From positions 1-64,000 of the forward strand of contig PTKV01000006.1 in NCBI GenBank assembly GCA_002937895.1: a stretch of 64,000 nucleotides of DNA, in the 5' to 3' direction. The stretch comes from Alphaproteobacteria bacterium MarineAlpha5_Bin9 (GTDB taxonomy: Bacteria; Pseudomonadota; Alphaproteobacteria; HIMB59; GCA-002718135). Position numbers and translations under genes: made by a program. Of this stretch, positions 31,033-35,584 are shown piece by piece. Each line of letters begins with the position of its first letter. Within the stretch, counting starts at the first letter, position 1. The notes beneath the pieces were generated by a model. It did not search any database. It saw only the letters and a list, made by a program, of their open reading frames with translations, and was not told the origin of the DNA.

Positions 31033-32370
31033 TTAGTGCATTAATGGCGACCAAGCTGGGTCTGACCCCCCTAAAGGGGTAATTATCTTTCTTTCGTTAT
31101 ATCCAGTTAAATCAATAGAATATAGGTTAGAATCCCCTCCAGAACCATCTTCAGCTGTTCTTTCTTCCTTAAAATACATTAAATACCTACCATTAGGGGC
31201 CCAAGTTGGCCCTTCAACGTGATAGGCTTTTGCTATCATTCTTTCATTAGAGCCATCTGTATCCATAACACCTATGTAAAATTGTCCACCTTCTTGTTTT
31301 GTAAAAGCTATCATATCACCCCTTGGAGACCATACTGGAGTATAGTAACTGCCTCCTTCTCTGCTTATCCTTTTTATATTTTTCCCATTTGAGTCAGCAA
31401 CATATAAATGTCTTCGTCCTGTTCTATCTGAATTAAAGACAATCTTTTTTGCATCAGGAGAAAAACTAGCAGAAACATCTATTGCTGTACTATTTGTAAT
31501 TCTTTTTTTACTCCTTGTTTCTAAATCAAGTATGTATATTTCTGAATTTCCAATTTCGGGATCTGAATAAGACATTATAATTTTTTTTCCATCAGGAGAA
31601 AAACGCGGGGCAAATGTCATTCCAGGAAAATCACCAACAATTTCTTGTTTTCCTGTTTCTATATCAAAAATAAAAACTCTTGGAGCTTTTGTATTTACAT
31701 ATGACATATATGTAATTTTTTGTGAATTCGGTGAAAAACGAGGAGTCAAAACGAGATAGGAACCATCAGTTAAAAATTTATGATTTGCCTGATCTTGATC
31801 CATTATTGCTAATCTTTTTTGTCTATTTTCTTTTGTGCCTGTTTCAGCAACGTAAACAACTCTTGTATCAAAATAACCACCTTCACCTGTTATTCTTTCA
31901 AAAATTATATCTGATATAATATGAGAAACTCTTCTCCAATTATTTTCTGAGGTTTCAAATCTTTTTCCTAGTAATTGTTTTTGAGCAAAAACATCATATA
32001 ACCTAAACTCAACAGCAATTCTATTTTCAGACTTTGTTACATTTCCAGAAATCAAGTGTTGAGCTTTTATTATTTTCCAATCTTCAAACCGAGGCTGATT
32101 TGAAAGAGAAGATATATCCTGAATAAAAGATTTTTTATTTAAAGGAGAAAATAAACCAGATCTTTCTAAGTTATCAGAAATTACTTGTGAAATATTTTTT
32201 CCAATCTTCAAAACCTCATCTTTATTTGAATAAAAATCAGTAACTGCTACTGGGGTAGGCTTCACTGAACCTTGAGTTAAAGTGACCTCAAGAGCAAATA
32301 AATTAAGCATTGAAGAAAAATAAATAACTATTAAACTTAAAACTATATTTAAATAATTTTTAGAAATCAT
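31033..32370 (-). CDS. tolB: Tol-Pal system periplasmic protein TolB
   Basis: Beta-propeller protein bridging Pal and TolA. After a signal peptide (IVLSLIVIYFSSMLNLFALE) comes the N-terminal D1 domain (YSNKDEVLKIGKNISQVISDNLERSGLFSP) and WD40-like PD repeats (FSPNSQKITYMS, FSPDGKKIIMSY, FSPDAKKIVFNS, WSPRGDMIAFT, WAPNGRYLMYF). Length 445 aa is standard. Its ATG overlaps the tolA stop (ATGA). Confidence 0.97.
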   Translation of the reverse strand: MISKNYLNIVLSLIVIYFSSMLNLFALEVTLTQGSVKPTPVAVTDFYSNKDEVLKIGKNISQVISDNLERSGLFSPLNKKSFIQDISSLSNQPRFEDWKIIKAQHLISGNVTKSENRIAVEFRLYDVFAQKQLLGKRFETSENNWRRVSHIISDIIFERITGEGGYFDTRVVYVAETGTKENRQKRLAIMDQDQANHKFLTDGSYLVLTPRFSPNSQKITYMSYVNTKAPRVFIFDIETGKQEIVGDFPGMTFAPRFSPDGKKIIMSYSDPEIGNSEIYILDLETRSKKRITNSTAIDVSASFSPDAKKIVFNSDRTGRRHLYVADSNGKNIKRISREGGSYYTPVWSPRGDMIAFTKQEGGQFYIGVMDTDGSNERMIAKAYHVEGPTWAPNGRYLMYFKEERTAEDGSGGDSNLYSIDLTGYNERKIITPLGGSDPAWSPLMH

Positions 32371-33370: not shown

Positions 33371-33796
33371 TTAATCTTTAGGATTCTGAGTTACTAGTGC
33401 CACTTTCTTATATCCAGCCGAATTGATTATAGCCATTATTTCCATTATTCTTCCATAGGCAACAACTCTATCGCCCCTAAGATAAATTCTAGCCTCAGTA
33501 TTTTGATCAGTAATAGCATTTAGTCTAGATACGATATTTTCTACTTTTACTTCTGACTCAGATAAATAAACAGTTCCATCTAACTTAACTGTTATTTCCA
33601 AAGGATCTTTTTGATCTGTCAAAGCATTCGCCTTTACATTAGGTAAATCTACAGGAATGCCTACAGTTAGAAGAGGTGCAGTTACCATAAAAACAATTAA
33701 TAAAACAAGCATTACATCAACAAAAGGAGTAACATTTATTTCACTCATTTGTGTGTATCGTTTACTAATTCTTTTTTTTTGATTTAAATTCATCAT
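33371..33796 (-). CDS. tolR: Tol-Pal system protein TolR
   Basis: ExbD/TolR family. A short cytoplasmic N-terminus with EINVTPFVDVMLVLLIVFMV contains the proton-channel Asp in the single transmembrane helix (~24-43), then a periplasmic domain (VDLPNVKANALTDQKDPLEITVKLDGTVYL). Length 141 aa is typical. Works with TolQ as the proton-motive-force motor. 11 nt after tolQ. Confidence 0.97.
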   Translation of the reverse strand: MMNLNQKKRISKRYTQMSEINVTPFVDVMLVLLIVFMVTAPLLTVGIPVDLPNVKANALTDQKDPLEITVKLDGTVYLSESEVKVENIVSRLNAITDQNTEARIYLRGDRVVAYGRIMEIMAIINSAGYKKVALVTQNPKD

Positions 33797-33807
33797 AATT
33801 AACTTTT

Positions 33808-34518
33808 TTATTTAGCCTCAAGTTGTCTAAAAAAAATTGTTGTAAATTCATCAATAAAAGATTCTAATGACATAAAATATTTTGATAAATCACTTGAAAT
33901 CTTGTTGTATGCTACTACAGCAGGTATAGCCACAAATAAACCTAATGCTGTTGCAAACAAAGCTTCAGCTATGCCAGGTGCAACTACAGACAAATTTGTA
34001 TTTTGAGCTATAGCAATAGATTGAAAGCTATTCATTATTCCCCAAACAGTTCCAAATAAACCTATAAAAGGAGCAGTAGACCCTGCAGTAGCCAGAAATG
34101 TTATATTTTTTTCAATTAATTCAGATTCTTTATTGTAAACTATTAGCATAGATCTATTCATTCTTTCTTTTAAAGAATTAATATTAATATTTGTTTTCGA
34201 TTTGCTGGACTTTTTCCATTCTTCTATAGCAGAACAAAAAATTTTCGATTTAGGATCGTTTGATTCAAGACTAAATGTTTCATACAAATCTTCAAAAGAA
34301 TTCCCAGACCAAAAAATTTCATCAAATTCTAATTCTTGTTTTTTTAATTTTCTATATTTAATTATTTTTGAGACAATTATAGCCCATGACCATATTGATG
34401 AAAATATTAGTATTAGAATCACACTTTTTACAACTAAATCAGCCCGAAAAAATAAAGACATCATAGAAAAATCTGTTGCTAACGAAGCTACTTCATTTGA
34501 TGATATAACACTTTCCAT
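33808..34518 (-). CDS. tolQ: Tol-Pal system protein TolQ
   Basis: MotA/TolQ/ExbB family channel with three transmembrane helices (residues ~33-50, ~145-165 and ~180-205) and the signature FLATAGSTAPFIGLFGTVWGIMNSFQ and APGIAEALFATALGLFVAIPAVVAYN. 236 aa is usual. Its ATG overlaps the stop of the upstream nuclease-like gene (TAATG), so translation is probably coupled to that gene. The thioesterase gene ybgC, a frequent upstream partner, is absent. Confidence 0.96.
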   Translation of the reverse strand: MESVISSNEVASLATDFSMMSLFFRADLVVKSVILILIFSSIWSWAIIVSKIIKYRKLKKQELEFDEIFWSGNSFEDLYETFSLESNDPKSKIFCSAIEEWKKSSKSKTNININSLKERMNRSMLIVYNKESELIEKNITFLATAGSTAPFIGLFGTVWGIMNSFQSIAIAQNTNLSVVAPGIAEALFATALGLFVAIPAVVAYNKISSDLSKYFMSLESFIDEFTTIFFRQLEAK

Positions 34519-34817
34519 TATTTTTCCTCAGTTATTTTATCTAAATCACTACTGTGAACCATTAACCAAAAACCTGGACGGTTTTTTTCACATAAAGCAA
34601 TTACAGGTGTCTTACCTTCTTCTTTTGCTAATTTTGCAGTTTCATCCCATAATGAAACAACAGCATGTTTTGCTCTTAGTTTACATTCTATAAAAAGTTT
34701 ATCATGTATTACATCAGCTCTTGTTACTTTACCATTCCCCCCGCTTAAAGGAGTTCTTTGCGCACTAAAATAGTTTGCAACATCTCTCTCTCTTTTTTTC
34801 CAGGCTTTATCAGGCAT
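34518..34817 (-). CDS. small PD-(D/E)XK-type nuclease-like protein (Holliday-resolvase-like fold suspected)
   Basis: A 99-aa protein with an N-terminal helix containing Glu (KKRERDVANYF), a SGGNGKVTRAD stretch and LFIECKLR: Asp35, Glu44 and Lys46 fit the D-x(n)-E-x-K pattern of the PD-(D/E)XK fold, and the later LWDETAKLAKEEGKTPVIALCEKNRPGFWLMV fits the helix-strand end of Hjc-like resolvases. The family call is by eye. It lies 17 nt after yebC and overlaps tolQ (TAATG), exactly where ruvC-ruvA-ruvB-ybgC often sit. Phage-type nucleases of similar size exist, so an acquired gene is possible. Confidence 0.7.
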   Translation of the reverse strand: MPDKAWKKRERDVANYFSAQRTPLSGGNGKVTRADVIHDKLFIECKLRAKHAVVSLWDETAKLAKEEGKTPVIALCEKNRPGFWLMVHSSDLDKITEEK

Positions 34818-34834
34818 TTTTTTTATCTCCTTTT

Positions 34835-35584
34835 TTATAAAGTAAATTTTTTCATTTGTTCATCAGATACATCATAATTAGATGAAACACTTTGTACGTC
34901 TTCATTTTCTTCAAGCGAATTAATTATTTTAAAAAGATTTTCATTATTTTCATTATTCAAATCAATACTATTTTTACTTTTCCAAACTAATTCTGTAGAG
35001 TTTGAAGTTTCAAATTTTTTATTAATTTTTAAATTAAGTGTGTGTAAATCTTTTACATCGCAGTATATACCATAATAATCATCGTTTACTTCAAAATCTA
35101 TAGATTTGTTTTCAATAACAAATTCAAACAAATCTTCTTCTTTAATATTTTCTTTTTTGACATTGATTAATCCAAGATGTTCAAAATTATAACTTACACT
35201 TCCAGTCTCTCCTAAATTACCGCCGTATTTAGTAAAGGTAGATCTAATTTCTGATGCAGTTCTATTTTTATTATTAGTCATTGTTTCTACAATTATAGCA
35301 ACACCAGAAGGTCCATACCCTTCATATCTTACTGGTTCATAGTTAGATTCAGGATCATTTGTTTCTCCTTTTTGTATAGCTCTTTCTATGTTACTTTTTG
35401 GCATATTAAGAGATTTAGCATTAAGAATAGCTGATCTTAATCTAATATTATTATCTGGATCACTTCCTCCTTCTCTAGAAGCTACTGTTATCTCTCTTCC
35501 TAATTTAGAAAAAATTTTAGATCTTTTTTTATCTTGAGCACCTTTTCGGTGCATAATATTTTTAAATTTTGAATGTCCAGCCAT
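34835..35584 (-). CDS. yebC: YebC/PmpR family protein
   Basis: Recognised by the N-terminus MAGHSKFKNIMHRKGAQDKKRSKIFSKLGREI, followed by NMPKSNIERAIQKG, YEGYGPSGVAIIVETMTNNKNRTASEIRSTFTKYGGNLGETGSVSYNFE. Family members act as transcriptional regulators or, in more recent work, ease ribosome stalling. Length 249 aa is typical. On the same strand upstream of the nuclease-like gene and tolQ; adjacency of yebC to ruvC is common elsewhere, but no ruvC follows here. Confidence 0.96.
   Translation of the reverse strand: MAGHSKFKNIMHRKGAQDKKRSKIFSKLGREITVASREGGSDPDNNIRLRSAILNAKSLNMPKSNIERAIQKGETNDPESNYEPVRYEGYGPSGVAIIVETMTNNKNRTASEIRSTFTKYGGNLGETGSVSYNFEHLGLINVKKENIKEEDLFEFVIENKSIDFEVNDDYYGIYCDVKDLHTLNLKINKKFETSNSTELVWKSKNSIDLNNENNENLFKIINSLEENEDVQSVSSNYDVSDEQMKKFTL

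What the first reader, a model, noticed from the sequence alone, without database searches (positions are those of the whole stretch)
34518..34817. Small PD-(D/E)XK nuclease-like gene at the usual ruvC-ruvAB-ybgC position
The 99-aa protein shows a D-x8-E-x-K pattern (Asp35, Glu44, Lys46) and a general shape reminiscent of Hjc-type Holliday junction resolvases. It sits between yebC and tolQ and is translationally coupled to tolQ (TAATG). In many proteobacteria that interval holds ruvC, ruvA, ruvB and ybgC, none of which are present here. A small resolvase-like nuclease, possibly phage-derived, may have taken over the locus and perhaps the job of RuvC in this reduced genome.
Basis: partly seen in the sequence, partly recalled or inferred. 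Interest (0 to 1): 0.72.

Follow-up and report, generated by a model that had tools for sequence, protein, structure and literature searches.

The report
Phage-type Holliday junction nuclease replacing RuvABC
A whole order of tiny-genome ocean bacteria has lost the standard RuvABC machinery for untangling crossed DNA and carries, in exactly the same chromosomal spot, a small nuclease resembling the archaeal enzymes that do this job, apparently taken from viruses that keep it next to their DNA-packaging genes.

Summary
A 99-codon gene (34518-34817, minus strand) lies between yebC and tolQ, with a GGAG ribosome site and a TAATG overlap with tolQ. It is a PD-(D/E)XK nuclease of archaeal-Hjc type: the top 10-11 PDB fold matches are all archaeal Hjc, and E10, D35, E44 and K46 align with the Hjc catalytic residues. 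It is present in 56 of 60 order-level relatives (20 of 20 good genomes, one on a single contig), at yebC-tolQ in all but one chimera-like locus. RuvC, RuvA, RuvB_C and RusA are found in 0 of 60; RuvC is in 361 of 387 alphaproteobacteria, and the new gene in no other order sampled. Elsewhere the same interval holds ruvC-ruvA-ruvB-ybgC. RecG and RuvX are retained. The closest outside relatives, 68-79% identical, are marine phage genes directly upstream of the large terminase; bacterial copies nest in phage diversity. Best reading: a phage debranching resolvase displaced RuvABC in situ and works with RecG. Junction cleavage and the in vivo role are inferred. The components are known kinds; order-wide loss of RuvABC with a phage Hjc in its place is, as far as I could find, unreported.

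The parts
34518..34817 (-). Hjc-type PD-(D/E)XK nuclease gene, 99 aa; active-site cluster E10, D35, E44, K46; conserved loop Ser25
34827..34830 (-). GGAG ribosome-binding site, 9 nt before the nuclease start codon
   Evidence: sequence read directly
34835..35584 (-). yebC, conserved upstream neighbour; next to ruvC in other alphaproteobacteria
33808..34518 (-). tolQ, conserved downstream neighbour; start codon overlaps the nuclease stop (TAATG)
33371..33796 (-). tolR, next gene of the tol cluster
31033..32370 (-). tolB, tol cluster

Best explanation
The gene encodes a small Hjc-like Holliday junction (branched-DNA) endonuclease of phage origin. In the ancestor of this marine alphaproteobacterial order (by inference GTDB order HIMB59, including AEGEAN-169 relatives) it took the chromosomal place of ruvC-ruvA-ruvB-ybgC between yebC and tolQ, and it now serves as the cell's junction resolvase. 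Branch migration, lost with RuvAB, is probably done by the retained RecG. Catalysis would be Mg2+-dependent strand cleavage by E10/D35/E44/K46 of a dimer. Shown: sequence, conserved active-site cluster, predicted fold, fixed locus, order-wide presence, order-wide loss of RuvA, RuvB and RuvC (and no RusA), RecG present, phage relatives beside terminase. Inferred: dimer, junction cleavage, partnership with RecG, functional replacement, direction of transfer.
For: Fold: AlphaFold models with pLDDT 81-83 and pTM 0.75-0.77; archaeal Hjc takes the first ten PDB ranks for one model and the first eleven for the other, probability up to 1.00; viral models named Holliday junction resolvase match with E down to 1e-4. 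Sequence: PHROG 2002 'Holliday junction resolvase' E 9.7e-10. Profile alignment puts E10, R21, S25, D35, E44, K46 on Pfu Hjc E9, R25, S29, D33, E46, K48. Distribution: present in 56/60 relatives and 20/20 good ones, 6/6 order members and 0/381 other alphaproteobacteria, own genome only among 399 of the phylum. RuvC 0/60, RuvA 0/60, RuvB_C 0/60, RusA 0/60; best RuvB_N hits are at most about 32 bits against 268 for a true RuvB. RuvC in 361/387 of the class. RecG intact in the own genome and in the single-contig relative. Synteny: yebC-nuclease-tolQ in 123/124 loci; yebC-ruvC-ruvA-ruvB-ybgC-tolQ elsewhere. Phage copies directly upstream of terL. The protein is better conserved between the two families of the order (67-70%) than YebC, TolQ, TolR and TolB (45-54%).
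Against: No biochemical or genetic data. Fold-match E-values to PDB Hjc are weak (2.5e-3 at best) with TM about 0.5, and hhalign probability is only 37-38% with shallow profiles. No Pfam or NCBIfam family matches. About 20 other sampled alphaproteobacteria lack RuvC without carrying this gene, so loss of RuvC does not require a replacement of this kind. RuvX is present and has been proposed as a resolvase in some bacteria (own knowledge). The tree of a 99-aa protein cannot decide between one acquisition and two.
Confidence: 0.72

Rival explanations
1. It is a Hjc-fold debranching or nicking nuclease, but in the bacterium it has another job (for example fork repair, DNA-uptake processing or interference with infecting phages that carry a homologue), and junctions are resolved by RuvX/YqgF or removed without cleavage by RecG and topoisomerases.
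For: RuvX is present in 53 of 60 relatives; RecG is present; some other RuvC-less alphaproteobacteria manage without this gene; phages of marine waters carry close homologues.
Against: RuvX is near-universal also where RuvC is present, its accepted role being rRNA maturation (own knowledge), so it is not a specific compensation. The nuclease sits exactly where ruvCAB normally sits and is fixed across the order. No defence-family match.
Confidence: 0.2
2. The order kept or gained the gene from another source and the phages captured it from these bacteria, rather than the reverse.
For: The f1 copies group with one phage clade (98/97) and the f2 copies with another (90/96), so exchange may have gone in both directions or more than once.
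Against: The more distant relatives found are all viral, including a Bacteroides phage; no other alphaproteobacterial order or other member of the phylum sampled has the gene; both bacterial groups lie inside viral diversity when rooted on the distant viral copies.
Confidence: 0.15
3. Absence of ruvABC is an artefact of incomplete assemblies or divergent genes.
For: Most genomes are single-cell or metagenome assemblies, 67-96% complete.
Against: 0 of 60 for RuvA, RuvB_C and RuvC, including the single-contig 1.41-Mb genome G036 at 99% completeness; the same search finds RuvC in 361 of 387 genomes of the class.
Confidence: 0.03

Closest known systems
Archaeal Hjc (PF01870; P. furiosus 1GEF, A. 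fulgidus 2WCW)
   Same: Predicted fold, size class, active site E-D-E-x-K and conserved loop Ser, in register in profile alignment
   Different: No detectable single-sequence similarity and no Pfam match; shorter Asp-to-Glu spacing (9 against 13) and a conserved loop (LSGGNGKVTRADVIH) not seen in Hjc; bacterial and phage, not archaeal
Hjc_15-6 of Thermus phage Tth15-6 (PMC8805305)
   Same: Phage-encoded archaeal-type junction-resolving enzyme with an E-(S)D-ExK motif and shown junction cleavage
   Different: Different spacing (Glu10-Asp40-Glu53-Lys55); that paper does not describe a chromosomal replacement of RuvABC in the passages read
PHROG 2002 and the marine phage genes found here
   Same: Same family; the phage genes are 68-79% identical over the whole length, directly upstream of the large terminase
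   Different: In the bacteria the gene is chromosomal, in the yebC-tol cluster, without other phage genes beside it
RuvC of RuvABC
   Same: Inferred job and same chromosomal position
   Different: Unrelated fold (RNase H-like, own knowledge); RuvA and RuvB partners are absent here
RecU (Firmicutes) and RusA (lambdoid phages)
   Same: Other non-RuvC resolvases; RusA is phage-borne
   Different: RecU works with RuvAB, which is missing here; RusA was not found in these genomes

Membership tests
[quoted passage not shown]
   helix, two short strands, strand, helix, strand; archaeal Hjc first in PDB
Hjc-type Holliday junction resolvase | Catalytic Glu (helix 1), Asp and Glu-x-Lys conserved | tested here: met
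   E10, D35, E44, K46 in all 90 close homologues where present; in register with Pfu Hjc. Five of nine distant viral relatives have Ser at position 44
Hjc-type Holliday junction resolvase | Significant match to the family's own sequence model (PF01870) | tested here: not met
   no Pfam match up to E 1; filed therefore as Hjc-like by fold and motif, not as a PF01870 member
Hjc-type Holliday junction resolvase | Dimer; cleaves four-way junctions with paired nicks | not testable with these tools
   needs purified protein
PHROG 2002 (phage Holliday junction resolvase) | Match to the profile over nearly the whole protein | tested here: met
   E 9.7e-10, residues 3-98; relatives
RuvC | RuvC domain PF02075 | tested here: not met
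RusA | RusA domain PF05866 | tested here: not met
   only a weaker hit to PHROG 244 'RusA-like', which archaeal Hjc also hits
RecU | RecU domain PF03838 | tested here: not met
   no Pfam match for this protein; the genomes were not searched for RecU
Anti-phage defence nuclease | Match to a known defence protein model | tested here: not met

The most novel reading that the evidence does not exclude
An entire bacterial order has replaced the RuvABC resolvasome in situ with a single phage packaging-module Hjc-type resolvase working with RecG, and has kept exchanging or re-acquiring the gene with the phages of each family (f1 and f2 copies group with different phage clades).
Probability: 0.45. Interest if true: 0.82.

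Novelty: new variant of a known kind. Interest (0 to 1): 0.72.

Why it matters
RuvABC is among the most conserved recombination machines of bacteria, and known departures usually keep RuvAB and change only the nuclease (RecU; own knowledge). Here RuvA, RuvB and RuvC are all gone from an abundant order of ocean bacteria, and a 99-aa nuclease of archaeal/phage type sits in their place. This offers a natural minimal resolvase-plus-RecG system, a clear case of a viral enzyme apparently taking over a core cellular function, and a direct test of whether RuvAB branch migration is dispensable.

Tried and rejected
Pfam, NCBIfam and PADLOC gave no family. Direct sequence search of the PDB with the protein or its profile gave nothing useful. 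Plasmids: no match. The named phage closest by terminase, pelagiphage Baldr (79% TerL), has an unrelated gene upstream of TerL, so the host of the carrier phages stays unknown. RuvB_N (PF05496) hits in all genomes were rejected as other AAA proteins: at most about 32 bits against 268 for a true RuvB, and RuvB_C is absent. Two separate acquisitions by the two families: one bacterial clade is not rejected (AU p 0.465), so this stays open. Recent transfer rejected: synonymous sites are saturated between phage and bacterial copies. Literature searches for a report of RuvC loss in HIMB59 or AEGEAN-169 found none in the held library; subscription papers are not held.

Full report
Observation. The 300-bp ORF at 34518-34817 on the minus strand is present as described: 99 aa, a GGAG site upstream, stop overlapping the tolQ start as TAATG, and yebC 17 bp upstream. 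The window lies in a 1.23-Mb, 22-contig genome that is 93% complete.

It is a real, constrained gene. Homologues occur in 56 of 60 relatives from the same family and order, in 20 of 20 genomes of good quality, and in a single-contig 1.41-Mb genome, G036. Within the family dN is 0.07-0.13 while dS is 0.9 or more. Between the two families of the order the protein is 67-70% identical, whereas its neighbours YebC, TolQ, TolR and TolB are 45-54% identical. Named homologues come from marine alphaproteobacterial single-cell and metagenome assemblies.

What the protein is. Pfam and NCBIfam are silent, but PHROG 2002, 'Holliday junction resolvase', matches residues 3-98 at E 9.7e-10. Two AlphaFold models (pLDDT 81 and 83, pTM 0.75 and 0.77) show the PD-(D/E)XK core. 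Against the PDB the first ten and the first eleven matches respectively are archaeal Hjc, with probability up to 1.00 but E no better than 2.5e-3 and TM about 0.5; against viral models E reaches 2.8e-6, with several entries named Holliday junction resolvase. Profile comparison with archaeal Hjc is weak by probability (37-38%) yet aligns every catalytic residue: E10, R21, S25, D35, E44, K46 with Pfu E9, R25, S29, D33, E46, K48. Across 90 distinct close homologues E10 (where the residue is present), D35, E44 and K46 do not vary; five of nine distant viral relatives have Ser at position 44. A phage Hjc of Thermus phage Tth15-6 with the same type of motif has been shown to cut X-shaped DNA (PMC8805305), so the mechanism has a tested precedent.

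What is missing. RuvC, RuvA_N, RuvB_C and RusA give 0 of 60 relatives each. RuvB_N gives only weak hits of at most about 32 bits, read as other AAA proteins, against 268 bits for a genuine RuvB. In an even sample of the class RuvC is found in 361 of 387 genomes, and none of the six order members has it. The nuclease shows the reverse pattern: six of six order members and none of 381 others; in a sample of the phylum only the own genome has it. About 20 other alphaproteobacteria lack both, so RuvC loss by itself does not entail this gene. RuvX/YqgF is present in 53 of 60. RecG, with intact helicase motifs, is present in the own genome and in G036 and is the natural candidate for branch migration.

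The locus. In 123 of 124 bacterial loci the order is yebC, nuclease, tolQ, tolR (loci partly redundant); the exception, L031, looks like a chimeric single-cell contig. Of 16 ruvC regions taken from other alphaproteobacteria, 15 have yebC and 11 have tolQ close by, and in the one read in full (L281) the interval is ruvC-ruvA-ruvB-ybgC. The nuclease therefore occupies the place of ruvCAB-ybgC.

Origin. More than 170 IMG/VR contigs carry relatives; the 80 best are 68-79% identical to the window protein. In 108 viral loci (partly the same contigs fetched twice) the gene lies upstream of the large terminase, with terS before it where the contig extends; in L153 its stop overlaps the terL start, and terS, terL and connector are confirmed by PHROGs. 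Such a position fits a debranching nuclease acting before packaging, as T7 endonuclease I and T4 endonuclease VII do (own knowledge). The tree of 103 columns places family f1 with one phage clade (98/97) and f2 with another (90/96), both inside viral diversity when read from the distant viral copies. A single bacterial clade is not rejected (p 0.465). Synonymous sites are saturated between phage and bacterium, so any exchange is old. The simplest account is an ancient phage-to-bacterium transfer before the two families split, perhaps with later exchange.

Mechanism and limits. I propose that the enzyme acts as a dimeric Mg2+-dependent junction nuclease and resolves recombination and reversed-fork intermediates after RecG-driven branch migration. 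Fold prediction, active site, locus, distribution and absence of RuvABC are shown; dimerisation, substrate, RecG partnership and the in vivo role are inferred. The main alternative is that the nuclease has another task while RecG, RuvX or topoisomerases deal with junctions. Literature searches in the held open-access library found no report of this replacement; subscription papers could not be checked.

Noticed in passing
L031 2118-3002 (AG-457-I08 NODE_14): The nuclease ORF runs in frame into a pyrE that lacks its own start, in place of tolQ. One single-cell genome only; probably an amplification chimera.
   Followed up: partly
L127 5311-6315 (Bacteroides phage BS162P1): A relative of the nuclease is the C-terminal part of a 334-aa ORF whose N-terminal part looks like an I-HmuI-type HNH homing endonuclease; the record names only the latter.
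   Followed up: partly
L168-L173: Distant viral relatives carry Ser instead of the catalytic Glu of the E-x-K motif while keeping E10, D35 and K46; either a migrated active site or altered activity.
   Followed up: partly
G141, G232, G307 (single contig, about 1.2 Mb, one family) and G097, G202, G282: Other nearly complete alphaproteobacterial genomes without RuvC and without this nuclease: how they resolve junctions is open.
   Followed up: no
L264 2844-3170 (pelagiphage Baldr): The named phage with the nearest terminase (79%) has an unrelated small gene with an N-terminal membrane-like segment directly upstream of TerL, where the carrier phages have the nuclease.
   Followed up: partly
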